DNA of 64,000 nt. Source: Aporrectodea caliginosa. Lineage: Eukaryota > Annelida > Clitellata > Crassiclitellata > Lumbricidae. Under the pieces are notes generated by a model. It searched no databases, was not told the origin of the DNA, and was given only the letters and a program-made list of their open reading frames with translations. The translations under genes were made by a program, and so were the position numbers. Position 1 is the stretch's first letter. The number at the start of each line of letters is the position of its first letter. The stretch lies in assembly GCA_020284085.1 (NCBI GenBank), contig JACEVL010001161.1, positions 3,366,844 through 3,430,843 on the forward strand, given 5' to 3'. Below, one piece after another: positions 7,101-43,797 of the stretch.

Positions 7101-7979
7101 GGTGACCCGTCAGAACGGCCCAGGACAAATCGGCCCCGACAAAACGGCCCCGACAAATGGGCCCCGACAAAACGGCCCCGACAAAACGGCCCCCGTCAAA
7201 ATGGCCTCGACAAAACAGCCCCGTCAAATCGGCCCCCGTCAAATCGGCCCCCGTCATATCGGCCCCCGTCATATCGGCCCCAGTCATATCGGCCCCCGTC
7301 ATATCGGCCCCAGTCATATCGGCCCCATGCAAAATATCCAATGTTGCAAGTACTTTTAAGCTTACGCTGACAAACTATGTTGAAATGAGGCCGCAAGCGA
7401 CGGTTCAGCTGGGCAATGGACTGCGGGGACCATCGTCTAATGCTAACTGGACCTGGTTGGCGTATTTAATTATTTAAATGCTTTCAATGACAACAGTTAC
7501 TATCATAGAACCAACTTCTATTTACGCAACGAATTGTTTTTCATAAATCCAACTTCCATTTTAACGCCAAAATTATTTTCAGCAATCCAACTTCCATTTT
7601 AAACTGACCACATAAAATAATTTGGCAACGTAAACTACGGTTTTATCAATCCGGATTCTATTTACGCAAATAATTCTTTTCATCAATCCCACTTAAAAGT
7701 ACTTAGGACACGGGATATTTTGTGATGGGCCGATGTGACTGGGGCCGATATGACTGGGGCCGGTTTGACGGGGCCGATTTGACGGGGGCCGATTTGACTG
7801 GGGCCGATATGACGGGGGCCGATTTGACGGGGGCCGTTATGACGGGGGCCGAAATGACGGGGCTGTTTTGTCGAGGCCATTTTGACGAGGGCCGTTTTGT
7901 CGGGGCCGTTTTGTCGGGGCCCATTTGTCGGGGCCGTTTTGTCGGGGCCGATTTGTCCTGGGCCGTTCTGACGGGGTAC
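7101..7979. mobile_element. Foldback-type element with GGCCCCGACAAAAC tandem repeats
   Basis: The left arm (7101-7350) holds about 15 tandem units of 14-17 bases such as CGGCCCCGACAAAA and CGGCCCCCGTCATAT. The right arm (7690-7979) holds the same units inverted. Both arms then share GTACTTTTAAG / CTTAAAAGTACTT, so the arms pair over about 250 bases. The core (7363-7690) contains four degenerate copies of AATCCAACTTCCATTTTAA. The outer ends are GGTGACCCGTCAGAACGG and its approximate inverse. The 10-base repeat CCATAATAAC lies directly outside both ends (7091-7100 and 7980-7989). It sits in the intron between exons 6897 and 9586 of the SEA/EGF gene. Confidence 0.85.
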
Positions 7980-8107
7980 CCATAATAACAGCTGAATATA
8001 TTTAGACGGGGTTACTTTGAAATGCATGTACAAATTGTACATGCAAACCTATTTTACGTACGTACTTTAGGCCTAGAGTTTTAAGTTAGGCAAACTAATT
8101 ATACTGC

Positions 8108-8214
8108 TAGCATGCCCACGTGAAACCCATACAGGACCAGTATTCCCACATGGGATCCCGTATAGAGCCCATTTGGGTCCTATCTAATACCCACATGGAC
8201 ATGCTGGCAGGGGC
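8108..8214 (-). mobile_element. Palindrome-rich MITE copy
   Basis: Read on the minus strand it begins CCCCTGCCAGCATGTCCATG and ends GTGGGCATGCTAGC, with the same order of half-palindromes as the copy at 30535: GGACCCAAATGGGCTCTATA, ATCCCATGTGGGAATACTGG, TCCTGTATGGG. Confidence 0.6.
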
Positions 8215-8714
8215 CAATACCCTACTCAACGTGAGTTGTATTAACATCGCTCTTTCTAGGGTAGTACTATCAACAAAGGCCTCTGAAAGCACTAGACCTA
8301 CTGAGAGTTATTCATTTTAAAAGGTTTTGTACTCCGACAGTTAATACCTTTATCGGTCTACATTGCAGAAAGGCATCAATCAGATTAATGGGGTTTTAGA
8401 AGAATGATGTTTTCTTATGGGATTAAGTTACTTAGGTTTTTTTAACGCATTTTCAGTCACAAAACTAATCTAATGTGCATCTGCTACGCATAATTACACC
8501 AGCTGTATACTTAATTAGTACATAGTCCTTCCCGTCCATGTCTGCGCATGGGGCAATGCATCCTCTCCATTCGTCTCTGTCCATCGCCAGTCTATCGGAC
8601 TCGTCCCACGACGTCCCCCAAGCACCTCGAGTCGTCTCTGATGGTCTACGGCCAATTCTTCCGTGGTCTTTACCTTTTCCTTTTCATGAGATCCAGATCA
8701 TCACTTGGTTGGCC

Positions 8715-8858
8715 ATTCTATCCTTATTACTAAGACGGCTTTGCCCTGCACACCGAGCAACTCAGTACAATTTGCGCACTCGTCCACATCCATTTGTCCT
8801 CCCAAATAAAGACGATAAAAACTTCATTCCACGTATGATGTTTAAAAACATTTATTAG
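8715..8858 (+). pseudogene. LINE C-terminal fragment
   Basis: RATQYNLRTRPHPFVLPNKD then DKNFIPRMMFKNIY and stop. This matches the extreme C-terminus of a non-LTR retrotransposon polymerase (Y/H-N-L-R-x-R, then N-F-I-P-R). It is 5' truncated and lies in the last intron of the SEA/EGF gene. Confidence 0.65.
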
Positions 8859-9585
8859 AGAGTCCCAAATCTAGACAATTAAGCCAAGCTAATCTACCTG
8901 ACCCAGAATGACTCTTTTAGCCTAAATACGTTTCACTTAAGCCGACTATCGATGAAGAACCTTGTAACTAGCTGCGTTATGACAGCCAGAGTTGATCAAT
9001 AAACGAAAATACAATAAAATACAATATCCTTACAAACCACTTGTCCCATTCAGTTTAAATCGTCCTCTTCTCTCGTTCGCTCTCATAGTTTCATTCGATA
9101 TTTTACCACGTTATGAAATATGCATAACTCTCTGTCACCTATAATGTACGGCCTTCTGTCTTTTTATTTGTCACTGTTATGGGCAAATTTAAGCCGTTGA
9201 GAGATTTTTAGGAGGGCGCTATCATTATATCTAGATATAAGGACTCGTATATGTGCACCTTTTCAGTGTCTAGAAAGGTATAAACACATACGATAGGTAT
9301 CTATAATTAGGTAGACCTATAAGTTTACAGAAATTTTAAATGGTATGCTTATTAAACCAAGTATGTTTGTGGTAATAAACACCGGTAGGCTATTAATGTT
9401 AAAAAACTTCACGGCGTCAAAATGAGCGTAAAAATGACACATGCAAACAATAAGTTTACATTACGAGCCACTATTTTCCTAAACTGAATGCAAGATATGC
9501 AGATAACTAGAAGTACTGGCGCATAGTATTTGTTTCATTTGTGCAATTTTTGTTCTGTATTTCGTCATCTGGTTTCACTCTACAG

Positions 9586-9757
9586 GAAACTTCTGGCGGA
9601 GAAAAGAAAGCGGAAGTCTGTCTCCCTGCGTCGAATGACGATGATGCAGGACTCGGAGCAGCTGCTCAGCGCCTCAGCATCCCTGTCTGTCGACAACGAG
9701 ACTTCGAGGAGTTCCAATGAAACGGCCGCTGCTGCCTCTGGTGGTCGCCAACACTGA
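9586..9757 (+). CDS. Cytoplasmic-tail last coding exon
   Basis: The acceptor TTTCACTCTACAG is strong. Entering in phase 2, the exon encodes R-KLLAEKRKRKSVSLRRMTMM, then a serine-rich segment (QDSEQLLSASASLSVDNETS), and stops after GGRQH at 9755-9757. The lysine and arginine cluster directly after the membrane helix fits the positive-inside rule for a type I protein. The serine-rich tail contains RRMT and RKS sites that could be phosphorylated (inference). Reading in phase 0 also gives an open tail of similar length, so the frame depends on the donor choice at 6897. Possible polyadenylation signals AATAAA lie near 10480 and 10685. Confidence 0.6.
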
Positions 9758-9799
9758 CTCAACGAACAGCAACAACAACACTTGCTCTGAGTCTCTCTG

Positions 9800-12300
9800 C
9801 TCCTGATATACGCCTTTCATGTCTGCAGCCGTTATCGACGCCCTCTCTGTCCGATCCGTGTCGCCTGAATGTCCGGATTTCTAAGCCAAACTGTAGCCCA
9901 ATGTTGGCTTAGACAACATAAAAGCCGCAAGTCAGCTGGCTCAAACAGGCAATCGTCCTATTCATATGACACAATATTAAATAACATGGTAGAGTCATTT
10001 GTGTTCGCAACAGGCTTCTTCACACCACAGCTCAAACGAGCAATTGCATGGCCTATTCATGCGTATATGACACACTATTAAACAACATGGTAGACAGGAT
10101 TCTACGTAACACGTAATGACGTTTGCGCTGTAAGCATCTAAGAAAAGGGATCGCATACTGCGCGCCAAGGAACAGCACAGTATGTTAACTTACTAAGTCC
10201 AGGTTAAAACTCTGACTATTAAGCAATCAATCTCAGACGCCAAGCTATGGCGACGTCATGGGGTTTCTTAATGACGTAACCCACAGACGCGGAAGGCCAA
10301 CGCTAGCGCTATAAAAGTTGGAGGGACAATTCATGCAGTTTATATACAGCAAACGACTGGGTGCTAGGAGTGTGATAATTATACGTCCTTAATTTATGCC
10401 CAGGATATAAGTTTAGATAATATCAAGCTTATACGAATGTTTTCGACCACCCTGCCTGACAAAAATAGTTATATCACCATAATAAAAATCTGGAAAGAAT
10501 ATTATGAACTAATGAAACGAATGATTTAGACCTAATTCCAACCCTTTGAAATCGGATAGGCACAGCGGTTGAATTCTCGCATGAGTTCATCCAGCAGTAT
10601 ACACAGCTGATCGTAAGAATTCCATCATTCTGTCTAAGATTAAATCGAATGCACGGAATATGAAGCGATGGATCGACATAACCCAGAATAAACTTACCGA
10701 CAAACAACAATTAATGTCATTAAACTTCGGGAGTACTTCCTAAAAATTGAACTCCTCTGTGAAAGAATCAATAGTTTCGTTCCGATGCTGTAGATTCTTT
10801 CGCTTGGGTGTTTCTGTTGTTTGGCACTGTGTTAGTTTTATCCAAGTGTTGCATGTACTTGTAATATGTATTGTAGGGGAAAGAATAGTTAGTAACTATG
10901 TCCTGACCAATTTTGTCCATTGTATTATTTTCGTAATGGTATCATAATCGTAACCACGACATTTCTAAATCGCTACTTGAAAGTTAAGCGCAGTGCACCA
11001 GCTTATTCAAGAGCGCTGATTTTCGCAACATTCTTTCTTAAAGATTACTTACTGCTCTCTGACTGCCTGAGTGCAAGCCTGCTGATCTTTACGTATGCCT
11101 GTCTATCCGCCTTCTTTCTTTTATCTGCATGACTGTGATGTCTGTCGTATAATATTTACATATCTGAACATTTCTCTATGCGGCCTGCCTTAGTTAGTCT
11201 TGCATGCAGAAACTGTCATCTATCTCACTGTTTATTTTTCTTAAAGATTCGTCATAATATAATATAATATATTTCTTTGCTCTTTTTTGATTTTTTGAAC
11301 CATCATTTATCTGTAGTTTGAGTTAAAATGTTATGTTAGACCTGCTTTTTAATGCAACGCATGTGAAATATATAACATTTTATTCTGGCAATAAGAAGGG
11401 CTAAGACTGGTGAAAAAGAGAGAAACCCAGACAAAAGTGAACCAACTTTTTAGTTAATTTAAATGGGATTGTAGCAGTAATGTTGAACCTATCGTAGCAT
11501 AAGACACATGCAAATGATTTTTTCTTAAAACATAATTCAAGCCAAAATCCTTTTGCGTAGACAAATTCTTTGGCATCTAACCAAGTTACATTCCAGACGT
11601 TAATTTTACTTTCATCTGCATTACTATGCTTGTTAGCACGCATCTATCTTTCTGTCTGTATGATTGTCTGTCTGTCTTTCTTTCTGTATGTCTGTCTTTC
11701 TGTCTGTCTGTCTTCCTGTCTGGCTATCTGTCTGTCTGGAAGATAATCATTTGATTCGCGGCCTTTGCTTAGCAGGGTCAGATGAATCATCGATGTCTCA
11801 GAGGTACGAAACTAGATGTAGGACGATGTTGAGGAAATGTGTTTCGTCGCTGGATTCTTGTGGTTTATTGCACATCAAGGACTTCAAAAACCACTAATGA
11901 TGATTTAAAACTACAAATGAGTCTCTGATGACTTTGCTGACCAAGGCAACAAATATGTGTGCATGTGTGGCATAAACAAATACATGGTATGCACGTATGC
12001 CTGTATGGATGTACGTATAGGCGTAATACAGGCGTATGTATGTATGCATGTGTGTATTATGTGTATGTATGTAAAGACTTTTACTACCTCGTAAAGCGCT
12101 GCCCAGTCTATACCCTGACATGAGCTCTGGAATAATAATTAAAAAAACTACTATAAGGCTTTCAGTTGGTTCGGTAGGCTGCTTTGATGTGTGTCGGATA
12201 TAGGGCAGTGAGTTAAACTGATGTCATTGAGTTTGCCTTTTGTTTGGCGAGGCCTTCAAACGGTGTTTACACGTTGGCCAAGTCGCTCGAAATTAAGGAC
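9800..12300. other. Mostly unique non-coding DNA after the SEA/EGF gene
   Basis: Probably the 3' UTR of the gene at first, with AATAAA near 10480 and 10685. Then comes a LINE tail remnant at 10978 and a degenerate CTGT-rich stretch at 11650-11742. I see no other gene. Confidence 0.5.
10978..11030 (-). mobile_element. LINE 3'-end remnant
   Basis: AAGCGCAGTGCACCAGCTTA then TTCAAGAGCGCTG is the inverse of the 3' end of the LINE family at 29558-30137. Only about 50 bases remain. Confidence 0.5.
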
Positions 12301-12319
12301 ATTAAAAAGCCTTCTCCCA

Positions 12320-13545
12320 TTTGCTTAAAGATGCCTTGAGTCTAACACGTAGAAGCGACCTCGTGGTATGTCTGGGAGATCCTAATGCTGTCTGTGGTTC
12401 AAATAGAAACCTTTGCATCGGAATTTGGAAATTGAATGACAACACGGTAAAGTAACTGGAATTCTGTGCCACTACCAGATTCTGCATTTGTTAGTCTTGG
12501 TATCAGAGGTGAGGTATCCATCGTTTTGCATGGTTTACCAACGATGGTTATACAAAGAGGGAGATCGATAACGTCTTGATGAACACTAGATGGAGGGCTA
12601 CTTCCCTATTATAGCAGAATCTCAGGCAGACTGGAATGTGTTTCAGATCAACGAGCAGTTGTCACTGCTTTTCTTTCCCCCAGGTTCATGATGGTGAACG
12701 GTAGACGCAAAAACGCTCCTTTGAGATTTAACATAAGGCTCCTACAGGATCCCAGTGTCAGAAGAGCTTACGAGGCTGACACAAGGGATCGTTTAATTGC
12801 GACTTACATGTATGTGTAGCATATGTGTAGACTGGGATATCTGTAGAGACGTCATGCATGGGGCATTGGGGCTGCTACTCTGCCACTCTGGGTTACTGAA
12901 GCAAGGAATGGAACAGCAACAGAACACGGGAACAGGTATCTAGGGAAAGAGATGCGAGGCTGGCTGTGAACCATGCTGACTATGTCGTACTCAACAAGGA
13001 GTGCAAGAAGTATGTTAAGGTTAATAAGCAACAGTGGGCCGAGGAGACAGCAAGGTTGGCCGAGGAAAGTTTGGCCCGAGGATGACAAGCGAAGCTTTTG
13101 ACGACTTCAAGTACTTCGAGTCAATTTCCAGAGGATCATTAGTCCGATCTCAGTCATGGATCACGGGATCTGCCTTTGCCCTGCAGTAGCTAAACTGGCA
13201 GATGCTGCAAGCATTATGAGCTATCGCTCAACCGCCCTGAATAGGCAACTTGACACTTTAGACATGCGGTGCCTCAGGAAGATCCTGAGATTATACCTTC
13301 ATGGACCTTGTCAGCTAGTAAAGAGAACTGCAAGAAAACCAGGCTCTCTCACAGTTCGGAAACGCAGTCTCAGCTATTTTGGGCTCGTCGCACGGGCTGT
13401 GAAACCACCGAAGAGTCACCTGGACCACAACTGGAGACAACGCGGCTGACCTAAGACCACTTGGACCAGAGTCGTTGAGGAGGTTATCGCAGATTTAAAG
13501 TTCGGCCTTCATACAGCATGAAGGAAGACTCAGGACAAACAGCTT
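12320..13545 (+). pseudogene. LINE with endonuclease and C-terminal remnants
   Basis: The first half carries apurinic-type endonuclease text in broken frames: VVCLGDPNAVCG, FCATTRFCIC, HRFAWFTNDGYTKREIDNVL and then a degraded S-x-D-H region followed by SCHCFSF. The second half reads STALNRQLDTLDMRCLRKIL and, after LTVRKRSLSYFG, TTWTRVVEEVIADLKFGLHT. These are the C-terminal features of the same LINE type. The RT core between them is mostly missing. Many stops are present. Confidence 0.7.
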
Positions 13546-13639
13546 GGCATTGATATGTATATTTTCATACGGCTCAGCTGAGTTAACATAGCATAACAAC
13601 GGTTTAAAGTGATTCAGACGTGTAGTCTGTGTTAGAACC

Positions 13640-13955
13640 GCTGCAAGTTATCCTGTAATGCCTAGTAGACAGTACTGTAGCCTATCTCTCCTATAGCTTC
13701 CTCTTAAAAGCTGTGATAGTGTCCACTGAGACCGTTCTATCATCTAGCTCATTCCACAGGCCCACAACTCTTGCACCGAAGAATTTCTGCCCTAATGTTC
13801 CTTTCGGATTCTTAAATAATTTATACCTATGTCCCTCAGTTGCCTTGTTTGGTGCTAATTAAAAAATCTCCCCTGCACTGCCTCCTTTCCAGTAATAATC
13901 CTGTAGGCTTCAATTAGGCTCCTCTGCTCCTCATTCTCTCTAATGTTGTTAGCAA
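13640..13955 (-). pseudogene. LINE reverse transcriptase C-terminal fragment
   Basis: On the minus strand: QRSLIEAYRIITGKEAVQGR, then APNKATEGHRYKLFKNPKGT, then GARVVGLWNELDDRTVSVDT and ITAFKRKL and stop. This is the classic C-terminal order (RGHRYKLF, R-V-V-x-x-W-N-x-L, F-K-x-x-L) of CR1/jockey-like polymerases. Confidence 0.8.
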
Positions 13956-13961
13956 AGTACC

Positions 13962-14033
13962 GGGGTTCGAACCTGCGACCTTTAGGCTCTGGTTCAAGAA
14001 TTTACCCAACCTCTCTACTAGATAAGCCAAATG
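13962..14033 (-). mobile_element. tRNA-like SINE head
   Basis: On the minus strand, GGCTTATCTAGTAGAGAGGT resembles an A box and GGTCGCAGGTTCGAACCCCG is a B box with stem. The T-arm is intact and the acceptor stem is not. Confidence 0.45.
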
Positions 14034-14479
14034 ACAAGAGCTAGTTAAATGACACGAGTTAGTTACCAGCTGCAGGATAAGTTGGTTTGTAAGGCGTAAG
14101 GCCTAGATGGCTTAAGGTAACACGTACGCGAGGGTTACATGGCTTAAGGGTAAGAGTTATAATTAAGGGCATTAAGGCGTGAGGGTAATATGGCCGAGGG
14201 GTAACAAAGGGCGAGGCTTATGGCGCCGCTGTATATAATAGACGGGTGTTCAGACAAAACAAGATAGGGTGCCAATCGGTCTGTGTTTATGACATATGTT
14301 GAGGAAACAGAAGATTTATGAGTGGTCGACTGTGTTTTTCTTCGCTTTTTATCTGCTCCGTTTCGTCAGCGTTATGAGATCTGTCGTCGTTTCTTGATCA
14401 TCGTTTGCGGCGGGGACTCTTTTCTCTTCTTCTTCTTTTTGTTGTTGTTATTGCTGTCTCGGCTACAGCGGCGCACAAG

Positions 14480-14480
<1 letters not shown>

Positions 14481-14548
<68 letters not shown>
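14481..14548. repeat. CT dinucleotide microsatellite
   Basis: About 33 CT units. Confidence 0.97.
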
Positions 14549-14550
<2 letters not shown>

Positions 14551-14804
14551 CACTCACAACAATAGAGCGACAGCGGCAATCATTGCACAACTGACGGCAG
14601 GCAGCAATAAATCAAAACCCTGTGTGAAGTATGGTCGCACATTTACACTAAATATAAATATATAGATAAATACATAAGTTATGTATAAATAGACAAATTT
14701 ACAGATATACAATACACATTCGCATGAGCATGCACGTGATTCATATAGCACTTAAAGGGCCCTGGTTGGTGCAGCTATACTTAAAAGGCGATATATATAT
14801 AAGG

Positions 14805-15012
14805 GTCCCGATAGCGCATTGGATAACACACTTGCGTAGAGAGCGAGAGGTACCGAGTTCGAGTCCCGTAGGGCGGATATGCTTTGTAGGCTGCTATTAG
14901 CGCCTTAGTATTGCAGGCTGTCTGTTCTGTTAGTAGTTAAGATTGTTTCAATTGCATAACATGTAAATGTACAGCGCAATGCGTTTGTCAGGCGCTTGAT
15001 TAAAGAACAGAT
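14805..15012 (+). mobile_element. tRNA-derived SINE with TA/TTA tail, complete copy
   Basis: The head (14806-14878) has tRNA-like boxes: GATAGCGCATTGGATAACAC and GAGTTCGAGTCCCG. The body ends AGGCGCTTGATTAAAGAACA then GATTATTATATATAT. The last hundred bases recur at 49138-49237. Confidence 0.75.
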
Positions 15013-15469
15013 TATTATATATATATATATATATACAGTGTCTAGATATAGGGCCTACATACACAGTGTGCCTCTCATATTATGTGTATATAGAATATAA
15101 TAAATCCTTTAATCATTCAATCAATTAATCAATTTATTGAACACCAGTTATAATAAAAACAATCAATATGTCAGTCACTCAAGTAAAGTATTAGTAGGCT
15201 TTAGGCATTCAAAGGCGAGACCAGAAGTTTCCCGCTAGTTTCTTTTGAAAGAAATCATGACGGCATTTTCAATAGTTTCATAATTCATCAGGTTCTGTTA
15301 AATTTATAAATTATGTTAGCCAAATATTTTCCTTTCATTTAACACTTTTAATGTCATTATATTGTACAAGTCGTTTATACGTGTAACAGGAAAGAAATAA
15401 AATATTAATTTAATTCTAATTTTATATTTAAAAACAACGGTGTGTATTCATATATTTAAGTGCAAGTGT

Positions 15470-15685
15470 ATATGTAGAAGAGAGGGAATATGCTTGGAGA
15501 AAGACATCATGCAGGGCACAATGCCGGGAAATCGGAAAAGAGGAAGACCGAGAATAAACTGGTTGGGCAACATAAAAGAATGGACTGTATTGACAATGGA
15601 GGAATTGATAAGACTGACGGAAGACAGGAGACGCTGGAGGAATATTGTTCATGATGCGGCCGACCCTCGAAACGAGGATGGCTGA
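15470..15685 (+). pseudogene. LINE C-terminal fragment (RTE-like)
   Basis: LEKDIMQGTMPGNRKRGRPR, INWLGNIKEWTVLTMEELIR and LTEDRRRWRNIVHDAADPRN, then stop. This is the recurrent C-terminal segment of many animal LINE polymerases: KRGRPR-x-x-W, then DR-x-x-WR-x-x-V-H-x-A. Only this end is present. Confidence 0.75.
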
Positions 15686-27915: not shown

Positions 27916-29470
27916 CAGGGGTGGACTGGGCCGCCGGGACACCGGGAAGATTCCCGGTGGGCCGCCAGGACCGGTGATATAATAATTTAATCAATTTAGT
28001 ACAGATGATACAGGTTTTTTACAAAAAATTGCGGCATCGGTTAACCGGTTTTTAGTTTCGGTTAACCGGTTTGTAAATTAACTGAAAAAGAGCAATGCAT
28101 ACTTACTTACCTACAGTGCTCCGTACAGCCAGCGGCCGCCATGTTAGATAAGAATTTACATCTTCCATTCTACTTCCGGCGTCTTCCACTGAGTTTGTTT
28201 TGATAAAATTTCTTTTAAATTTGTTAGTTAGTAATAAGTAATATTAATTAAATAAGATATGTTACGGTTATGAGTGATATAAATCCGAAACGTAAATGTA
28301 AAGGTGGTGCGGAGAAAGTAAGAGATAAGAAACTAAAGATTCTTGGTAAAGATGGAGCTAAATGCCGAAATCTAGTCGATTTATTTAAAGCCACTCCAAT
28401 TCAAACTGAAGACACCAGCTCTCAACAAACACCTTCTGCAAGTAAACAACCCGACACAAATCGAAACGATGAAAACAATCAGCATTCGGTCCAATCAGTC
28501 GTGCCAACAAACTTTATTCCCACCTTACATTTAGAAAATGTTACGGAGCCGTCGGAGTTAACTGACAACACAACGCTGGCAGTGGCAGATCTAAATGCCG
28601 AGAATGATAGTTCAGAAGAAGTGACAGAAACTTCAGTTATCGATGATAAAAACACCAGTTACTATTTCAAACGTCCTCGACAGAATACTTTACAATCGTT
28701 TTTTAAATTTCACCCAATACAACCTAGTGTGAGTGAAACTGATCTACCATTTACAAATGCGTATCGGGTATTTTTCAGAAGCAATGGTATCAATAGGAAT
28801 TGGGTGTCATACTGTAAAGAATCTAAAGCATTGTTTTGCACAGTATGCTTAGCATATGGCAAGACTGACGATATGAACTCATTCACAACGGGAATGAATT
28901 CCTGGAAACATGTGCATCAAAGAATAGAGGAACATGAAAACAGCAAATATCACGAGAAGTGTGTGGAAGCTCATTTAATGTCTGTAAGTGGAAGAGACAT
29001 TGATAGCATTTTATTCTCTCAGCAAAGTAAACGAAGGTACCAAGAAGTTCAAGAAAAGAGACAAGTGCTGGAAAGAGTAATTGAGATTCTGAAAATGATT
29101 GGAAAACGTGGTCTCAGTTATCGGTCAAAAAATGATGCTGCATATACATTAAACGACGATACAATCGATCATGGAAATTTCTTGGAAATATTATTATTAA
29201 ACAGCAATAATACCATCACAGTGAGTCCGAATAAATTGATTTATAACTTGAGTTGACGCATTCTTAATATTTTATATATAATTATAAATTATATATGCGA
29301 TTTATCGTTTTTTGTTATTGCATAATGTAATTTGTAAAGTGACCCATGACTTTGGAGGTCACTGGCCCTCGGGTATGCATGAAAAAATGCACAAAGAAAA
29401 TAAAAGTCATGAAGTTAGGGCCGCTTTTTGTTTTTTTCCCGGGCCGCTTGAACTCCCCAGTCCACCCCTG
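27916..29470 (+). mobile_element. hAT DNA transposon, internally deleted, with exact ends
   Basis: The ends are inverted repeats: CAGGGGTGGACTGG at 27916 and CCAGTCCACCCCTG ending at 29470. On both sides sits the identical 8-bp duplication TTATCTCT (27908-27915 and 29471-29478), the signature of hAT transposition. At 1.55 kb it is much shorter than a complete autonomous hAT. It encodes only the N-terminal part of a transposase (28270-29256) and no DDE or dimerisation domain. Near the left end two palindromic CGGTTAACCGGTTT motifs lie in tandem (about 28038-28071), possibly transposase-binding sites (inference). The intact target duplications and terminal repeats suggest recent insertion. It sits inside another element that interrupts a LINE. 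Confidence 0.93.
28270..29256 (+). pseudogene. Truncated hAT transposase (TTF-type zinc finger, ZMYM1-like)
   Basis: A 328-codon frame without internal stops. Residues 1-150 are basic, then low in complexity and rich in S, T, N and Q. Residues about 160-240 form a TTF-type zinc finger: a W-V-S-Y-C segment, then ALFCTVCLAYG and a run of histidines (WKHVHQRIEEHENSKYHEKC). Residues about 255-315 match the start of the hAT catalytic region (RVIEILKMIGKRGLSYRS, then GNFLEIL). The frame then ends abruptly. The RNase H-like catalytic core and the C-terminal hATC dimerisation region are missing, so no active transposase can be made. Such N-terminal pieces can still bind DNA; repressor function here would be speculation. 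Confidence 0.85.
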
Positions 29471-31341: not shown

Positions 31342-31344
31342 AGA

Positions 31345-31386
<42 letters not shown>

Positions 31387-33486: not shown

Positions 33487-33526
33487 AATCTAATCTAATC
33501 TAATCTAATCTAATCTAATCTAATGC
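33487..33526. repeat. TCTAA pentanucleotide repeat
   Basis: Seven to eight perfect TCTAA units. Confidence 0.97.
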
Positions 33527-34859: not shown

Positions 34860-34963
34860 TTTGTGTGAATTTATATTGCTGATGCTTGTTCATCAGAGTT
34901 CATCTTTTGCAGCTGGCTATATTAAATAATATACTTACTTACTTGTTTACTTACTTACTTACA
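34860..34963 (+). mobile_element. Retroposon 3' end with TTAC tail
   Basis: GCAGCTGGCTATATTAAATA is followed by ACTTACTTACTTG and further TTAC units. The layout matches the one at 16655, but the sequence differs. Confidence 0.35.
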
Positions 34964-34969
34964 AGGGTG

Positions 34970-35700
34970 ATTCAATTGCTGAGCTGTCAGACGCTGCCTG
35001 TAACTTAAGTGTTGTTTTCAAGTTTACCATGTCTCTCACTGGCCGTGTAAACAGTATTTGTAAGTCATCATATAATTTGATCATTCGTGACATACGCATA
35101 AATAGGCGTCATGTGCCCTTGTCTGCAAGGATATGTCTGGCAAATGGATTGGTTTCAAGTCGCCTAGATCATTGTAACTCGCTTCTTACTGTAATCAATA
35201 AGTCAAACATACTGAAGCTGCAGAGAGTTCTGAACTCTTTGGCTAGAGCCATAACTAATACATCCAAATATGAACATATGACCTTATGCTAGAATCTTTG
35301 CATTTTCTTCCTGTTCAGCAAAGAATTAGTTTCAAATTGGGGCTCATAGTTTATAAAACTCTTATCTCTGGCCAGCCACAAATCTTAAAATCACTGTTCT
35401 TATTCTCCAGACTGATCATATTATTCAGCGAGGTCATCTGATTGTCTTTATCTGGTCATACCGAAATCAAGAACTGATCTTGGCAAACGAGCTTTTTCAG
35501 TTGCTGGACCTACTTTTTAGAACTCTCTTTCTGGGTCTGTCCGCTCTGCTCAGTCGCTTGTGTCATTTCGTTCCCAACTTAAAGCTTACCTCTTTCAAAT
35601 TGCTTTTTCATTATAGACTGCCTCTCTGTCTCTTACGGACTGATCTTCTGGATGTTGACCTGATTAAGGCTTGGCTTAGTTGTGCCATCGGTTGATGCCT
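34970..35700 (+). pseudogene. LINE reverse transcriptase C-terminal fragment
   Basis: FKFTMSLTGRVNSICKSSYN, SRLDHCNSLLTVINKSNILK and LQRVLNSLARAITN are followed by LESLHFLPVQQRISFKLGLI. After a frameshift comes GKRAFSVAGPTF then a stop in place of the conserved tryptophan, then SFRSQLKAYLFQ. Motif order is typical of CR1/L2-like elements. The substituted tryptophan and frameshift show it is dead. Confidence 0.85.
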
Positions 35701-35814
35701 TGTGCATTAGACACCGACGCAATAGAAGTTTTACAATTTCCATGTGAACAGCTGCAGCTGTTGACTGCTAGAGAAGTTTAAGACAGAGTTTGGATGAGAT
35801 AATCGTCAACCGTG

Positions 35815-35900
35815 GGACACAGTAACAGATTGGTTAGAGCGCTGGCTTCGTAACACAGCGGGCACGGGTTCGAATCTTCCCAGAGACGATTGCTGTGCAG
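35815..35900 (+). mobile_element. tRNA-Thr-like SINE head
   Basis: AGATTGGTTAGAGCGCTGGC, then a CGT anticodon-like loop (TTCGTAA), then GGCACGGGTTCGAATCTTCC form the D, anticodon and T arms of a tRNA-like promoter. The acceptor stem does not pair, so a SINE is favoured over a true tRNA. Confidence 0.5.
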
Positions 35901-36018
35901 GGATCTAGAACAAGTCTTTTAATTAAAAATTCATTCACAATTGCTGAGCGTCATTGATTGCTGCTTAATTATTAGATAGTGGCGTGCAGGTCTAATGTGC
36001 AATATGTGTAAAATGTGT

Positions 36019-36019
36019 A

Positions 36020-36104
<85 letters not shown>

Positions 36105-36150
36105 TGATGATGATAATAATAATAATAGTAATGGTAATAATAATAATAAG
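36019..36150. repeat. TGA/CGA/TAA trinucleotide microsatellite
   Basis: TGATGA units, then CGACGA, then TGA and TAA units. One frame encodes polyaspartate, which is a repeat artefact. Confidence 0.95.
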
Positions 36151-36889
36151 ATAGCCGTCTGTTTGTCCCAGAATGTGTTTCGTATTCTCCGGATAATTTT
36201 TTAATTTCTCAGAGAGTATTTCTTGAGGAAAAATAATAATCGAAAGAGGAAGAAGAAGCTGTCGAACAAATGACAAACAATTGAATCGGTTTGCTAGAAA
36301 GCTACCGAGTATAAAAGACAAGAATTTGATGCAACCAACTAGAATGAATGTCTGACTGGGCCTCGTAGGAATCCGCAAGACGCATATATCATCTGAACAG
36401 TCATGCCATCTTCAGCTCTCGACGGGAATCCGCTGGTTGTGTGCGTTGGCCCGCCGGTGGTGAATCTTCTAGCTTACTCTGCATTGTTTTGCTAACTGAT
36501 GTCATTTTCGTTCGTATACTGACACTTAACATCCTAAATAGGCTAGCGCAGAGAGCGCCTCTGAGTAGATATCTTGAAAAAGTGCTATATAAATTCTCAG
36601 AATGAATGAATGAATCCGAAATTCGTAAAGACGTCTGGTCGTCACGTGAGGGATCTCTTCGCTGAGGCGCAGATATCACACCACAATCTATGAAGACCCA
36701 TTGTATTGCTGGATTGCGTTGGTTTTTCTTCACCTCTAATGAAAAAGGAGGAACGAATGACTGAACATTAGGTCCTAAATTATTTATATGACTACACAGT
36801 ATACATGTATGTGCCCATATTGTATGTATTTATGCGTTTACATAACAGGTCTATTTGCATACAAGGGGTATAAGTGATAAGATCGGATA

Positions 36890-37205
36890 TGGTCGGCTCT
36901 GCTCCGCCATAGTTGACGACTTTTTGCACCTTCTTGGTCGGAATTCCTTTCGATCGCCTGCCTGTGGCCTCCTAGTGGTTCCCCGTATGCGCACCCACCG
37001 CTACTTCCCAAGCCAGTTTTGCTTTTGTAGGCTCATCCAGCTGGAATGACTTCCCTCAGGACCTGCAGCTAGAGCTCCTCAGAATCGCTCCCTCAGTTCA
37101 GCAAGCGTCTAAAAACATTCCTGTGTGCCAGTGATGGCACTGGCCCGGGCGGGGAGCGCTAATCAATTTTTGTTGGTGGCGCTTTATAAATTTTCGATTA
37201 TATAA
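36890..37205 (+). pseudogene. LINE 3' fragment
   Basis: SSSWNDFPQDLQLELLRIAP-like text is followed by a 3' UTR ending GGCGCTTTATAAATTTTCGA then TTATATAATTACA. It is the same family as 49735-50575. Confidence 0.6.
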
Positions 37206-37627
37206 TTACAATAACCTGATTGATTGGCTGAATTGGTTGAAGTCGTTGGTACAAATGACATTTTTCAGGGCCACGATTCTGAGGACCTTCCGTAGAGTCG
37301 CGAAAGCAAATGTGTTACTGTTACTTTCAAAAGCAATTAAGGGCAATCGTGTACAACTGGGCGTTAAAACAGCACTTGTTGAAGTCTTTAATGTAATTTT
37401 TGTATGGGAAGGCCGATAGGAATTTGTCTGAAGACAGGTTATGTTAAAATTGTTGCCTAAACTCGAAAACGAAAAACTTAAATGAATTTTAAATACAATT
37501 TAATCAGCTCAACTTAAGACTTTGCCTCATTGAAGATATGTAGCCTAGACAGATTGTAAGATAGATCACGGGGTTGACTGTTGTCTGGTCTACCATCCTA
37601 TTTCTGCTCTAAACTTAGTTTCTAAGG

Positions 37628-39100
37628 GGTTCCGGACAATTCCCCCCCTGTCAATTCCCCCCGGTCAATTCCCCCCCGTCAATTCCCCGGTCAATTCCCC
37701 AGGTCAATTCCCCCCGGTCAATTCCCCCAGGTCAATTCCCCCTACATATATATAATAATTATATTGTTATTGATTAATTACAATAATTATTATATAATAA
37801 TAATTTAATTATATTGTTATTATATTATAATTAATTATATTATAGTTATAATTAATTATATTAATTTAATTATATATTATATAATTTATATGCAAAAATA
37901 TCATTATATAATAATATAAAATATATGTCAATTCCCCCTACATATATATAATAATTATATTGTTATTGATTAATTACAATAATTATTATATAATAATAAT
38001 TTAATTATATTGTTATTATATTATAATTAATTATATTATAGTTATAATTAATTATATTAATTTAATTATATATTATATAATTTATATGCACAAATATAAT
38101 TATATAATAATATAAAATATATGTCAATTATTTCCTATATATATATAATAATTATATTGTTATTGATTAATTACAATAATTATTATATAATAATAATTTA
38201 ATTATATTGTTATTATATTATAATTAATTATATTATAGTTATAATTAATTATATTAATTTAATTATATATTATATAATTTATATGCACAAATATCATTAT
38301 ATAATAATATAAAATATATGTCAATTCCCCTACATATATATAATAATTATTATAAAATAATTACATATATTTTATATTATTATATAATTATATTTGTGCA
38401 TATAAATTATATATAATTAAATTAATATAATTAATTATAACTATAATATAATTAATTATAATAATATTTATTAATTAGTATAGTAATATAATTATTAAAA
38501 TAATATATAATATGTAATAATAATTAATATCACTAATAAATATATTAATTATTTATTAAAATTATATGTATAATATATAATATTAATATATTATATTAAT
38601 TATTATAATTATATAATTATTATATAATATATAATTATTAAATTATATATATAATATAATATATACACATATACATAGGTATTTATATAATTATATTAAT
38701 ATTTAATAATCTATAAAAATATATATTAATATTATTAATATCATATAATTTTATAATAATTAATTATATTGTTATTGATTAATTACAATAATTATTATAT
38801 AATAATAATTTAATTATATTGTTATTATATATATTATTAATTATAAATTGAATTATAATATATATATTATTTCTATTAATATAATTAATTATATTAATTT
38901 AATTATATATTATATAATTTATATGCACACATAATATAATTATATAATAATATAAAATATATGTAATTATTTTATAATAATTATTATATATATGTATGTA
39001 GGGGGAATTGACCGGGGGGAATTGACCTGGGGGGAATTGACCGGGGAAATTGACGGGGAATTGACCGGGGAAATTGACCGGGTGGAATTGTCCTAGACTC
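37628..39100. mobile_element. Foldback-type element with GGTCAATTCCCCC repeats and AT-rich core
   Basis: The left arm (37634-37745) carries GGACAATTCCCCC followed by tandem CCGGTCAATTCCCC units; the right arm (38999-39093) carries the inverse and ends GGAATTGTCC. The 10-base repeat GTTTCTAAGG flanks it at 37618-37627 and 39101-39110. The core is nearly pure A+T. It begins with three to four direct copies of a roughly 196-base unit starting at about 37740, 37938, 38134 and 38330, each followed by CAATTCCCC or a variant. It then continues in inverted orientation. No coding sequence. Confidence 0.85.
37740..38335. repeat. About 196-bp AT-rich direct repeats
   Basis: Three nearly identical units, each starting CCTACATATATATAATAATT (the third reads TCCTATATATATATAATAAT) and ending in ATATGTCAATT. 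A fourth begins at 38330 and turns into the inverse sequence. The whole block is a strong palindrome-former inside the foldback element. Confidence 0.85.
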
Positions 39101-39289
39101 GTTTCTAAGGTCTTTGAGAGAGTCACAGTTGACAGGATTAGTCGTCACTAGTCTTGTCGTCTCAATCTTTACGGCTACCTGCCAATCATCCAACACTTAT
39201 CGAGAATACTATTCCACTTAAATAACACTGCTTGCTGTCCACGATCATGTAATTCGTTCGACGGATGAAAGGAAAGTCACCGCTTTCAT

Positions 39290-39640
39290 CCTCGAAGTGT
39301 CAGTTAAATTCAGAAGAGTTGATCATTGCATACCGACTTCACCGTCTTGATCACTTGTTTAACCTCTTTAATGCTGCTCTCAGCTTGTTGTTTTCCCTGT
39401 GTCCTAGCATCCAGTCGATCCACTTCAGGGAGTTTATCTCATCGTCATCGGTTGTTTCGGTCTATGGCGTGCCACAGTGCTCGACACTTCACCATCTACT
39501 TTTCACTGTTTAAACTCTGGTGCTTAGAGCGCCGATCGCTGACCTTTTACTGAATCTCCATACGTATGCTGAAGACAATCAACTTCTGTTCTACTTCTGC
39601 TTCTTTTCTGCAACTACTCTCTGATGTTTTTTTTGAGATT
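39290..39640 (+). pseudogene. LINE reverse transcriptase core fragment
   Basis: SSSVVSVYGVPQCSTLHHLL corresponds to the conserved GVPQGSVLGPLLF. HTYAEDNQLLFYF corresponds to the catalytic YADD box with the first aspartate changed to glutamate. Both changes disable the polymerase. A piece of the 3' end of a different LINE follows (39770-39900). Confidence 0.75.
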
Positions 39641-39769
39641 ATATGGAAATGATTGACATTCAATAAGCTTATTTTTAAATTTCAAAAACCGAATTTGTTT
39701 GCTCAATCCAGCAGCTGCACAAGTTTGACTAACTCACTTACATCAATTCATTTGAGTGGTCACAGCGAG

Positions 39770-39900
39770 TCCTAGGTCCCCTCTCTTTGATCTCTCTGGG
39801 AACTAGACTCAGATCTAGCTCGTAAATAAACTGATGCCCTTCGCTTATCACTAGAGTAGCGCTTTAGACATCTGGATTTTACTATTACGATTCATTCGCA
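39770..39900 (+). mobile_element. LINE 3'-end fragment
   Basis: AGCTCGTAAATAAACTGATG, AGAGTAGCGCTTTAGACATC and ACTATTACGATTC match the 3' end seen at 5550. It separates two pieces of the LINE at 39290 and 40000. Confidence 0.55.
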
Positions 39901-39999
39901 ATTAGTCATCACATCATATGGTTGTCATATTTGATCCAATAATATATATATTTTTCACAGAATATTGAAGCTCCTGCAGATCTTTTCCTACAGGATACA

Positions 40000-40740
40000 T
40001 AAGTGGAATAAGATCTCAAGTGCACGGGAATATCTTGGTTTAAATCAGCTAACGTTCTGGTATCTATCTAGTCGTCTTGATCGCTGTAATTCGTTTTCAA
40101 CAGCGTCAAAAGACAATTCTGCACAAATTACAATATTTGGAACTTATTGGCCAGGGCTATAACGAAAAGACCAAATCTGAACACAGCACTTTCATCCTGC
40201 ATTCATTGCACTGACTTGCTATAAAACAAGTGGTTGGTGACTGTTTAACGATGCTATGTCATAATAAAGATGGTTAACGGCGCCCTCCTCCTTTATCCAG
40301 GATTGGGATTGGCACTACCATAGATCGGGCAGTGGCGGAGATTCCTATAGAACAAAGAATTTAGTTTCAAATTTGTCTTATAGTTTATAAAGTGCATATA
40401 ATACAGAACGACCAGCAGACTTTCTTTCGTCTTTACTCAACCCTCAGGTTCATAATTGCTCACTGGATGCTTTGCCTCTCATTGTTCTTCTCCTATGCAA
40501 CACAGTACTTGATTCCCAGGCTCGCTCAGTCTCAGAAACTAAGCTCTTTCATTCTCTTTCTATTCCTGTCCGCTCCGCTGGGTCTATGATATCGTTCTTG
40601 CTCTTCGATACTACTCTCTCTCTCTCATCCGGTTTCAGTCATCGGACTCGTCTGTCCGAAAATATAAATTAGCCTCAACTGAAACCCCATCTGTTTCAAA
40701 TTGTGGCCCATTTACCAAAGGGCCACACGGATCTTGACTG
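40000..40740 (+). pseudogene. LINE reverse transcriptase C-terminal fragment
   Basis: SSRLDRCNSFSTASKDNSAQ corresponds to SRLDYCNSLL. Later IEQRISFKF and, in shifted frames, further C-terminal text continue to about 40740. It is heavily frameshifted and probably the continuation of 39290-39640. Confidence 0.6.
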
Positions 40741-40869
40741 TATGACTCTGTCCAATGGATTCTGATTTGGATTTTGCGATTTTGATGAGAAACGACGATC
40801 GTTGATGATAACTTTTGTATTACGACGATGGCGATAAACATTGTTTCCTGGTTAGATTAGATCAGAGAT

Positions 40870-41092
40870 GACGATGGTGGAGTGGTGTTTATGTTTTTGT
40901 TGTTGTTGCTGTTGTTATTATTAGTGGTGGTGGTGGTGATAGTTGGCGGTGGTGATACTGGTGGTGACAGTGGTGGTAGTGATGAAGATGGTGACGAGAA
41001 GAGGGTGGGTGATGATCGCGTTGGTGATAGTAGTCATAGTGGTGTTGATTACGGTGGTGGTGATAATGATGACGGTGATGGTGGTTGTAAAC
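40870..41092. repeat. GGT-rich degenerate trinucleotide repeat
   Basis: GTTGTTGTTGCTGTTGTTAT then GGTGGTGGTGGTGAT and degenerate GGTGAT units. A smaller similar block lies at 41393-41465. Confidence 0.85.
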
Positions 41093-41658
41093 TACCGCCA
41101 CGTGTGATAGCTTACTTCACATATGAGTTGTCACTCTCTCGAAAAACAGAGTACGACTAACTTTATTCTCAACACTCACACAGAAGATACATGAACATGA
41201 AATGAAGTTTTCCTATACATTCTGATTGGTTCTAATGTACGATTCTCAATAATAGAGTTCAATCATTATAGAGTCTGTTCTTGCAACATTCTAATATAAT
41301 TTACATATAATAATATTATAACCAAAGCACCACTACTATTAAAACATAAATCTGTAAGTACATATCTTTATGAATATGACAAAGGTGATACCGTGATAGT
41401 GGTGGTCGCGATGATGATGGTGACGAGGATGAGAAGGATGGTGGTGATGATGATTATGATGATGCCCTCGCTGTTTGCGTTTAACCTATATGAACTGTAT
41501 TTCGTAACAACGTGTTTTGTTGTCTATGACAATCGAGTTCGACGAAATCTCCTCTGATTGGAGAGGAGTGAAATTGAAATCGTTTGCGTATATAAACCTA
41601 CCCTTGATCATAATAATAATAATTTTGTTTTTGAGTCTGAAGGTCTGTATGTTTGTAG

Positions 41659-41750
41659 GCCTACGTGACAGTCGTTTGATCCACCAATCAAAGAGGCGAC
41701 CGACCGGGACGACGTACGTCCAGGTGGCCAACTATTACTCATCTTCTCAG
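41659..41750 (+). CDS. Candidate internal exon, unknown protein
   Basis: An open segment bounded by TATGTTTGTAG and CTCAG/GTGAGG, with a second perfect donor CAG/GTGAGT 14 bases further on (after 41764). It encodes LRDSRLIHQSKRRPTGTTYV followed by QVANYYSSSQ, and is richer in G+C than its flanks. I recognise no domain. It might belong to an unseen gene or to the PRR15-like locus downstream on the same strand, but nothing links them. The two donors would differ by 14 bases and so shift the frame. Confidence 0.3.
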
Positions 41751-41842
41751 GTGAGGAGCCTCAGGTGAGTCATCCCAGTCATCATCAGCGTCGTCGACCA
41801 GCTCGACTAGTTCTACTTTGCCTCGTCTGTATATATATATAT

Positions 41843-41874
<32 letters not shown>

Positions 41875-42263
41875 ATACCTCTTCATGAACACTTGTATAT
41901 GAGTAATACACACATATATATATATATTATTTGTATATATTTATACATGTACGTAATATGTCTAGTTGTATACAAAGGGTATAGGTAACACTGAATGACG
42001 GCACCATGATATGATTGATAGGCTGAAGTCGTTGAAGTCGTTCGTCCAAGTGACTTCTCTGAGCATCGGTTCAGTTGTTTCATGACGCACGTCAGCTTCC
42101 AACCAGTTTCACAAGAGACAAGCAATCACTTCTCATTGGAATCAATTTTTATAGGCGAACGGGCAATTGTATAGAGGCAAATCACGTCCTGGAAAACGAA
42201 GCTAGGATGAATATAATTGAGCCAAACCAGGACTTATAATCTAATCCAATGACTTCCTCCCAC

Positions 42264-42342
42264 CATGCGTGTACATGGAGCCCATGTGGGATCCATATTC
42301 CTATAGGTGTATGGGATCCTATATGGGACCCGCATAGGTCGT
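42264..42342 (+). mobile_element. Palindrome-rich MITE copy, partial
   Basis: CATGGAGCCCATGTGGGATC and GTATGGGATCCTATATGGGA belong to the same repeat family; terminal repeats are not visible. Confidence 0.4.
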
Positions 42343-42493
42343 TGAACAGATATAGATCGGTTGCTTTATTATATTTAACACTTTGCGAAGTGTAAGACAG
42401 ATTTTAAATTGGGTTCTCTGCCAGTGTAACGTGTATATAAAACTAAATATATATATTGATTAATGCAAAACAGGTTGACAAGCCGCAACACGA

Positions 42494-43172
42494 TTACAAT
42501 GTAAAGTGAAATGAGATTAGTGATGTAGAGTTATAATGGATTGTGCAATACCGATGTGAAATGTTGATACTTAAGGGTTTATGTTTTCTGGCTCTGGCCC
42601 CAGAATTTTGAACCATTTGAAGTTTGTGTAGAACTTCCTTAATGGTGCCAATAAGAAGTGAGTTGCAGCAACCAATTCTGCTGGAGACTGAGGCATTAGC
42701 TAGTGTGTTGGTCAAACAGTTTGCAGCATATGAAATCTGATTATGCGAATATACCCTGTGTTGAATAAAACCGATCTCCGTCCACCTTGAACAGGTTCTG
42801 AAAGGAATAAAACATTTGCCCACAGTACGTACACATTCAGTACGATCTAGTTCTATGAGCAAGTCACTTAGCTGAGCAGACTTAAACCAGTCAAATTTGC
42901 GAAGCTGTTGACTTGTGCCAAATAGTAGGAATCAGACTCTTTAGAAACCGTCTGCTACTATCCATCCAGTACGGAACATTACTGAAAACAGAAGCAAGTA
43001 CTTTCAGAGCAGCGTTAGCCGAAGAGCTGTGAAATGACGGGAATAGTTGGGTACCTACAGTGGTATCGCCGAGAGAGCTGTCAGTAGGTAGTGAACAAAT
43101 TGGTGTGATGTATAGTGTAAACAGAAACGGGCCTAGTACAGAACCCTGCGGAGTACGGCGTGCTCAAGACAG
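42494..43172 (-). pseudogene. LINE reverse transcriptase fragment, reverse
   Basis: On the minus strand it starts RTPQGSVLGPFLFTLYITPI (conserved RT box). It then passes through a frame with SANAALKVL and later reads ISYAANCLTNTLANASVSSR, IGCCNSLLIGTIKEVLHKLQ and MVQNSGARA. The catalytic YADD box is degraded. A CR1/L2-like element. Confidence 0.8.
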
Positions 43173-43284
43173 CTGGCGCCGGACTGAATTGATTTATATG
43201 AAATTGAATGGGCACGTGCAGAGGCGGGTCCACACTTTTTGGGCCATGAAGTTTTAACTGTTATGGGAAGGCCCCTTTGCAACT

Positions 43285-43797
43285 GGTTGCAGGACATAAT
43301 CCTCCGGTCATAAATTTCAGAGATAACCCCACGGACAAAATCTCCCGGACATAATCCCCCAATTTTGCATAGGACATAGAAGAAGAAGAGGAGCAATCCC
43401 TTGAGCTAGTCCTGAGACAATCAATGGGTATGAAGTGTTAGCGACTTCATTTTCTTAGCCTCGGCATACGAGGGCGGGTGGACAATCCTCTCCCTCACCG
43501 TCTCACCTTCCCACCGACAGTGTACGGTCAGTAAACTCTGCTGATTTGGCTAGGGGGTGCTGGTGGAACATAAATCTCGAATCATATTTTCTGCCCTGGC
43601 GGGGATTTGAACCCCTCACCCCCGACCTCTCGATTGACAGTCCAATGCGCTAACCACTACACTATCGATGTTATAGATGTTATTGGATATTATGTATAAG
43701 TTTATCCATCTTACTTGACTGAGGTTGGGGTGATTATATCCTAGCCTGGCTGGATTATATCCGGGGGATTATATCTAGAGGGTATTATGTCCGTCTA
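43285..43797. mobile_element. Foldback-type element with GGACATAATCC repeats, carrying a SINE
   Basis: The left arm (43285-43376) contains GGACATAATCCTCC, GGACAAAATCTCCC and GGACATAATCCCCC. The right arm (43725-43797) contains the inverse GGGGTGATTATATCC, GGATTATATCC and GGGTATTATGTCC. The 11-base repeat CCTTTGCAACT flanks it at 43274-43284 and 43798-43808. A tRNA-derived SINE fills the core. It lies inside hAT copy 2. In hAT copy 1 a shorter stretch of the same repeats occupies the equivalent place (23265-23335). Confidence 0.7.
43394..43672 (-). mobile_element. tRNA-Asp-like SINE, copy A
   Basis: On the minus strand the head reads TAGTGTAGTGGTTAGCGCAT (A box), then GGACTGTCAATCGAGAGGTC with a GTC anticodon-like loop, then GGGGTTCAAATCCCCGCC (B box). 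This is a tRNA-Asp-like promoter. The body of about 200 bases is shared with copy B at 59492-59746 (for example GAAGTG or GAAGTCGCTAACACTTC-like text near the 3' part). It sits inside the foldback element 43285-43797. The tRNA-like head cannot be a working tRNA because the acceptor stem does not close. Confidence 0.75.

What the first reader, a model, noticed from the sequence alone, without database searches (positions are those of the whole stretch)
7101..43797. One architecture, three different sequences: foldback elements with 10-11 bp target duplications
Elements at 7101-7979, 37628-39100 and 43285-43797 have unrelated repeat units (GGCCCCGACAAAA, GGTCAATTCCCC, GGACATAATCC). They share the layout: arms of 13-17 bp tandem units in inverted orientation, a non-coding core, and flanking direct repeats CCATAATAAC, GTTTCTAAGG and CCTTTGCAACT. 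Two begin GGTT(G/C)C followed closely by GGACA. A fourth probable member lies at 44390-45768. This suggests one mobilising enzyme family acting on rapidly diverging minisatellite ends. It resembles Drosophila FB and sea urchin TU elements in form, but I cannot say whether this set is described.
Basis: partly seen in the sequence, partly recalled or inferred. Interest (0 to 1): 0.75.

Follow-up and report, generated by a model that had tools for sequence, protein, structure and literature searches.

The report
Foldback jumping genes of Phantom type
These are short, non-coding relatives of a known group of animal jumping genes (Phantom-type Mutator transposons) whose ends are built from small repeats, and the same genome holds full-length relatives that carry the kind of enzyme likely to move them.

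Summary
The three foldback elements are real, but the target duplication is 9 bp, not 10-11. Aligning each element's arms in register gives 9 bp in all three. A blind scan of the window returns exactly these three, against 11 hits in 40 shuffles. Other E1 copies agree: 11 of the 14 with both ends resolved have an exact 9-bp duplication. Two paralogues of E3's site that I read have no insert and one target copy. The fourth structure is a repeat family too, but shows no duplication and is split by a young 826-bp element.

The predicted longer relative exists: MULE transposases, several with a FLYWCH finger, lie between 12-16 bp minisatellite arms, four with exact 9-bp duplications. The ends share a plan: a 7-nt cap, mostly starting GG, then tandem units. 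Eleven transposase families differ in unit, and units track transposases (Mantel p 0.007 hand-read, 0.026 scripted).

This pattern is in print as Phantom, Muta and Tm1 foldback MULEs (PMC3169594, PMC5225508). It is a new set of members of a known kind. Which transposase moves E1-E3 is inferred.

The parts
7101..7980 (.). Element E1, 880 bp, ends GGTGACC... and (reverse complement) GGTACCC...
   Evidence: 40 genomic places scored of 1552 candidates, 93-100% identity
7092..7100 (+). E1 target duplication, left copy CATAATAAC
7981..7989 (+). E1 target duplication, right copy CATAATAAC
7106..7326 (+). E1 left arm, units near GGCCCCGACAAAAC
   Evidence: 95% inverted match to the right arm over 222 bases
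7727..7976 (-). E1 right arm
37627..39100 (.). Element E2, 1474 bp, caps GGGTTCC and (reverse complement) GAGTCTA
   Evidence: family; same caps in two other copies
37618..37626 (+). E2 target duplication, left copy GTTTCTAAG
39101..39109 (+). E2 target duplication, right copy GTTTCTAAG
37632..37742 (+). E2 left arm, units near GGTCAATTCCCC
37743..39000 (.). E2 AT-rich core; 196-bp period over 37731-38350
39001..39090 (-). E2 right arm
43285..43799 (.). Element E3, 515 bp, caps GGTTGCA and (reverse complement) GGTAGAC, each followed by GGACATAAT
43276..43284 (+). E3 target duplication, left copy TTTGCAACT
   Evidence: one copy of a variant in two insert-free paralogues
43800..43808 (+). E3 target duplication, right copy TTTGCAACT
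43378..43668 (-). High-copy, probably tRNA-derived SINE inside E3
   Evidence: 5423 candidates, 40 scored; weak tRNA match 43601-43664 minus, below gathering score
44395..45768 (.). E4, an older foldback-like family member interrupted by a nested element; no target duplication
44401..44556 (+). E4 left arm, units near GGACGATTGGTCATA
45733..45768 (-). E4 right arm, about two units
44907..45732 (.). Nested young element, 826 bp, GGGAA... ends, TA on both sides; not part of the foldback set
   Evidence: 39 other scored copies at 96-100%; ends

Best explanation
E1, E2 and E3 are non-autonomous cut-and-paste DNA transposons of the Phantom branch of the Mutator (MULE) superfamily. Each end has two parts: a 7-nt terminal cap (GGT, GGG or GAG first; the two caps of an element usually differ) and an array of 12-16 bp units. 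Inferred mechanism: a FLYWCH-MULE transposase made by full-length relatives binds the repeated units, cuts at the cap and inserts with a 9-bp stagger that is duplicated on repair. The transposase lineages of the genome have units of their own, so a non-autonomous family probably depends on the lineage whose unit it matches (E1 on the lineage of L054; E2 and E3 on lineages like L048, L050). SHOWN: end anatomy, 9-bp duplications, multi-copy families for E1 and E2, insert-free paralogues for E3, transposase ORFs between arms of the same plan. INFERRED: which transposase moves which element, that the units are binding sites, and that anything is still active.
For: Exactly 9 bp in register in E1, E2, E3 with chance low. 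E1: 11 of 14 copies with both ends resolved have an exact 9-bp duplication, 2 have 8 of 9, 1 none; 4 further copies unresolved. E2: two other copies have the same two caps, one with a 9-bp duplication. E3: 8 of 40 matches run across the joined flanks, two read, both without insert and with one target copy. MULE loci with inverted arms: 16 of 34 against 0 of 100 background places. FLYWCH plus MULE in 3 proteins; 119 of the 120 listed relatives of the L059 transposase carry both. Exact in-register 9-bp duplications at L045, L050, L056, L059. Right cap GAGTCTA shared by E2 and by coding loci L042, L048, L050. E1 unit matches the L054 unit at 0.93, shuffled p 0.002. Published Tm1 and Muta elements have the same plan.
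Against: No coding element with E1, E2 or E3 arms was found among the loci held. FLYWCH was not found in L048, L052 or L056, whose ORFs may be incomplete. Of 21 large MULE loci examined for duplications only 4 gave an exact in-register 9-bp one; L043 has a 12-bp repeat (8 or 10 bp in register) and L055 8 bp. Half of the 34 loci show arms on one side or none. Tandem arrays as such are common in this genome (45 of 100 background places). Unit matches of E2, E3 and E4 are weak (0.71, 0.69, 0.53) and use units read by eye, without correction for several tests. No formal tree with named Phantom sequences was made.
Confidence: 0.88

Rival explanations
1. The elements are foldback derivatives of another superfamily (as Galileo is of the P superfamily), and likeness to MULE ends is convergence.
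For: Foldback form arises in different superfamilies: Galileo carries a P-type transposase (PMC3169594; PMC3688188). No coding partner with E1-E3 arms was found.
Against: 9-bp duplications, caps shared with MULE-coding loci, GAGTCTA above all, and E1's unit close to that of L054. That P-type elements duplicate 7-8 bp is recalled, not from a call.
Confidence: 0.05
2. E3 in the window is not an insertion of its own but a copy of an older insertion that was spread with a larger host repeat.
For: 30 of 40 matches to the joined E3 flanks cover only the right flank, and 28 of these start at query base 110-112, at the duplication. The one read, C461, has an E3-like right arm directly before the shared flank.
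Against: Only 1 of the 30 was read, and none of their left sides. Insertion as such, at some time, is still shown by the insert-free paralogues.
Confidence: 0.55
3. The arms are ordinary minisatellites that happen to lie inverted; the flanking repeats are chance.
For: Tandem arrays are common here: 45 of 100 background places have one within 1.6 kb.
Against: Sharp, repeated ends and varied 9-bp duplications in E1 copies; scan against shuffles; inverted sharing in 0 of 100 background places; none of nine other arrays of the window has an inverted partner within 8 kb.
Confidence: 0.01

Closest known systems
Muta1 and the 14 MULE families of Aedes aegypti (PMC5225508; sections 6 and 7 and passages seen)
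   Same: Many MULE families in one genome, 8-9 bp duplications, FLYWCH in 13 of 14 families, 9-15 bp subterminal tandem repeats in 10 of the 12 long-ended families, non-autonomous derivatives with varying repeat number. Muta1 excises and reinserts in yeast.
   Different: Muta1 has a 10-bp palindromic terminal motif; here the caps are 7 nt, usually unequal at the two ends. Sequences were not compared.
Tm1 of root-knot nematodes (PMC3169594; passages and first part of the Discussion seen)
   Same: Asymmetric 7-bp terminal motifs, then GGA, then 13-15 bp tandem repeats, mostly 9-bp duplications, a Phantom-type transposase. Its repeat after GGA (CGATTCAGTATCC...) begins like the L059 unit GGACGATTCATCCCC (by eye). 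Copies without duplication are also reported there, explained by crossover.
   Different: Tm1 has one transposase-bearing element; here there are at least 11 transposase families among 30 loci.
Phantom (Marquez and Pritham 2010; not held; known through PMC3169594, PMC6446971 passages and recall)
   Same: FLYWCH plus MULE domains, 8-10 bp duplications, some with foldback ends.
   Different: No tree with named members was made here, so the exact clade is not placed.
Tetris of Drosophila virilis (PMC4079207; passages seen)
   Same: Non-autonomous foldback element, 8-10 bp duplications, tandem repeats inside the arms; placed by its authors in Mutator.
   Different: Units of about 220 bp, no coding partner found.
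Drosophila FB and sea urchin TU foldback elements (recalled; named in passages)
   Same: Overall foldback form.
   Different: Sequences not compared; form alone does not assign a superfamily.

Membership tests
Mutator-like (MULE) superfamily | Target duplications of 8-11 bp | tested here: met
   9 bp in E1, E2, E3, in 11 of 14 resolved E1 copies, in one further E2 copy; not met in E4
Mutator-like (MULE) superfamily | MULE transposase in the autonomous members | tested here: inconclusive
   Present between arms of the same plan, but no coding copy with E1, E2 or E3 arms among the loci held
Phantom branch | N-terminal FLYWCH finger plus MULE domain | tested here: met
   For coding relatives L053, L044, L045; not found in L048, L052, L056; E1-E3 themselves do not code
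Phantom branch | Position in a transposase tree with named Phantom members | not tested
   No named sequences at hand; only relatives without names were found
Tm1-like foldback plan | Unequal 7-nt terminal motifs followed by GGA and 13-15 bp tandem repeats | tested here: met
   E2 and E3, L043, L050, L055; E1 differs, its GGACA lies at +23; L044, L045, L056 have caps but other units
Galileo / P superfamily | THAP/P-type transposase in coding members | not tested
   No search for P-type transposases was made
Drosophila FB, sea urchin TU | Sequence relationship of arms | not tested
   No FB or TU sequences at hand

The most novel reading that the evidence does not exclude
One genome carries a whole set of Phantom lineages whose ends split into a conserved cap (cleavage module) and a lineage-specific minisatellite (address). 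The array units co-evolve with the FLYWCH finger, so that non-autonomous families are shared out among transposases that do not cross-react. That would be an animal system of transposase-end co-evolution with at least 11 natural pairs in one genome.
Probability: 0.35. Interest if true: 0.6.

Novelty: new member of a known kind. Interest (0 to 1): 0.38.

Why it matters
It settles what form alone could not: these foldback elements most likely belong with Mutator, and the genome that carries them holds coding relatives. Many transposase lineages and matching repeat units side by side offer a natural series for testing whether the minisatellite arms of foldback elements are transposase binding arrays, which PMC3688188 (passages) calls untested for Foldback and Phantom.

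Tried and rejected
Duplications of 10-11 bp as read by the first stage: rejected, because the lengths differ only when the arms are not aligned in register. E4 as a plain fourth member: an older foldback-like family interrupted by a younger element with TA on both sides. Of 8 E4-family copies whose ends were fetched, 2 (C525, C1332) have a plausible right end and neither shows a clean 9-bp duplication (C525 has a 10-bp repeat that takes in the element's own first bases); in 6 the right end was not reached. An empty allele for E1: none in this assembly, only the window's own two flanks match. An E2 empty site was prepared but not searched. Inverted partners for nine other tandem arrays of the window: none within 8 kb. 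Phantom relatives in viral contigs, with the L059 protein: none confirmed. A coding element with E1 arms among the fetched loci: none; the strong E1 match is another E1 copy in the L056 locus. Tandem arrays alone as a sign of these elements: not informative. The host was not identified. The unit strings and the caps were read by eye; the 21 caps leave out the 6-nt right cap of L059. The array part is scripted, with a G+C and length filter, and drops L054 (no array).
Full report
WHAT IS THERE. The window is G000:C1160:3366844-3430843 of an unnamed assembly of 1,097,852,775 bases in 4544 contigs. Three elements have inverted arms of short tandem units and flanking direct repeats. The longest shared flanks are 12, 10 and 11 bp. 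When the two arms of each element are aligned on their shared GGACA, the longest duplication compatible with the register is 9 bp in all three: CATAATAAC, GTTTCTAAG and TTTGCAACT. A scan for a 9-bp repeat with at least 15 of 24 matching terminal bases returns exactly these three places; 40 dinucleotide shuffles gave 11 hits in total. A wider scan with duplication lengths 4-14 and a looser threshold (14 of 24) gave weaker hits at other lengths, among them several in TATG microsatellites, and four more at 9 bp with 14 of 24 matches.

COPIES OF E1. Forty places were scored out of 1552 first-look candidates, at 93-100% identity over the first 300 bases. I looked at 18 copies: L001-L008 (L001 is the window's own) and 10 more by end fragments. 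Both ends were resolved in 14. Eleven have an exact 9-bp duplication (L001, L002, L003, L005, L008, C609, C361, C800, C28, and read by eye from the output, C1189 and C763); 2 have 8 of 9 bases (L004, C903); 1 has none (L006). The right end was out of reach in 4 (L007, C1032, C873, C70). The duplicated sequences differ from copy to copy. No empty allele for the window copy is in the assembly: its joined flanks match only themselves.

COPIES OF E2. For the first 134 bases of E2, 40 places were scored of 384 candidates, giving 46 matches; 27 (the window's own included) start at query base 1, 7 at base 8 and 12 elsewhere. Two loci, C61 and C347, have one match from base 1 and an inverted one from base 8, so the arms agree after a 7-nt cap and the caps differ. 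Both ends of these two copies were read: caps GGGTTCC and GAGTCTA in both, as in the window. C61 has GTCAGCATC duplicated (9 bp); C347 lies in a GTAT microsatellite with a 12-bp repeat.

E3. Its core at 43378-43668 matches a high-copy repeat (5423 candidates, 40 scored) with a weak tRNA match on the minus strand (20.2 bits, gathering score 29), so probably a tRNA-derived SINE. Matching the joined flanks gave 40 hits: 2 are the window's own flanks, 8 run across the junction at 76-79% identity and 30 cover only the right side, 28 of them from base 110-112. Of the 8 I read two (C539, C838): no insert and one copy of a variant of the target; the window has about 8 further bases just beyond it. Of the 30 I read one (C461): an E3-like right arm stands directly before the shared flank. 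The window's E3 may therefore be a copy of an older insertion carried along by a larger repeat.

E4. The first 506 bases match 40 scored places of 1013 candidates, other than itself at 76-86% in the main matches, many with an inverted partner arm near by. No duplication flanks the window copy. Ends were fetched for 8 copies: left ends read GTATAC (4) or GTATCC (4), then GGACG; the base before is G in 7 of 9 copies counting the window, so the cap may be GGTATAC or GGTATCC. Only two right ends were plausible and no clean 9-bp duplication was seen. The inner 826 bp (44907-45732) is a different, young element: 39 other scored copies at 96-100% with sharp ends and TA on both sides in the window.

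CODING RELATIVES. Pfam MULE (PF10551) was scored at 150 places of 395 candidates. I held DNA for 34 distinct places: the best 30 by score plus L057-L060. By script, 17 have tandem arrays of 11-17 bp on both sides, 15 on one and 2 on none; 16 share array words in inverted orientation and 6 in direct orientation. At 100 background places of the window, 12 had arrays on both sides, 45 on at least one, and 0 shared words in inverted orientation. Arrays alone are thus uninformative; inverted sharing is not. L010, L039, L040 and L041 are ZSWIM-like MULEs without such arms (Pfam on L040, the rest by likeness of sequence). Exact in-register 9-bp duplications flank L045, L050, L056 and L059; L043 has a 12-bp repeat (8 or 10 in register) and L055 8 bp. 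No clean one was resolved at the other loci examined (the 20 loci); L060 was not examined. L059 is 2977 bp with a continuous 474-aa ORF between arrays of GGACGATTCATCCCC-like units. Its protein has 316 relatives at E 0.001 among 7995 scored candidates; 119 of the 120 listed carry both FLYWCH and MULE, and the best, from a metagenome, is 100% identical. Of seven proteins scanned, L053, L044 and L045 have FLYWCH plus MULE, L048, L052 and L056 have MULE without FLYWCH, and L040 is ZSWIM-like.

END PLAN. Of 21 caps listed, 20 start with G and 18 have G second (read by eye). The right cap GAGTCTA is shared by E2 and the coding loci L042, L048 and L050. After the cap come GGACA-type units in E2, E3, L043, L050, L055 and the right end of L059, and other units in L044, L045 and L056. 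E1's unit is close to that of L054 (similarity 0.93, shuffled p 0.002); E2, E3 and E4 have weaker best matches (0.71, 0.69, 0.53; p 0.006, 0.018, 0.046, not corrected for several tests). Thirty non-ZSWIM loci fall into 11 clusters at 80% identity. Unit similarity correlates with transposase identity: Mantel r 0.37, p 0.007 with 11 families and hand-read units; r 0.34, p 0.026 with 10 families by script. This fits arms and enzyme diverging together; common descent alone would also give it, and binding is untested.

MECHANISM. Most likely a FLYWCH-MULE transposase recognises the repeated units and cuts at the cap, and repair of a 9-bp stagger gives the duplication. Arrays may raise specificity, as argued for Galileo (PMC3688188, passages). 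Slippage or unequal exchange could let arms diverge (inference).

KNOWN OR NEW. The pattern is in print: Aedes aegypti has 14 MULE families with 8-9 bp duplications, 10 of its 12 long-ended families carry 9-15 bp subterminal tandem repeats, and 13 of 14 have FLYWCH (PMC5225508, section 6). Tm1 has asymmetric 7-bp motifs, then GGA, then 13-15 bp repeats, mostly 9-bp duplications and a Phantom-type transposase (PMC3169594, passages). I therefore file E1-E3 as new members of a known kind. Four library searches listed no title or abstract start that speaks of comparing units with transposases in Phantom elements; that is a limited look at listings only.

Noticed in passing
window 44907-45732: A young, high-copy 826-bp element nested in E4: 39 other scored copies at 96-100% identity with sharp ends, GGGAA...TTCCC termini and TA on both sides. 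Its superfamily was not determined.
   Followed up: partly
window 37743-39000: E2's core is AT-rich with a 196-bp period in which the arm unit GTCAATTCC recurs, as if part of the arm had been duplicated inward.
   Followed up: no
L039, L040, L041: A second MULE type in the same genome: ZSWIM-like, without minisatellite arms, with long EVEHEN-type repeats at the end of the ORF in L039 and L040.
   Followed up: no
L059: Dozens of MULE places in the genome share one score (51.0 bits) and many a 474-aa open frame, L059 among them, which suggests a recently active family; and its protein is 100% identical to one from a metagenome contig.
   Followed up: partly
window 28252-29253: An ORF of 334 aa with a zf-C17orf113 zinc finger match (E 2e-7), perhaps part of another transposon-derived gene.
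   Followed up: no
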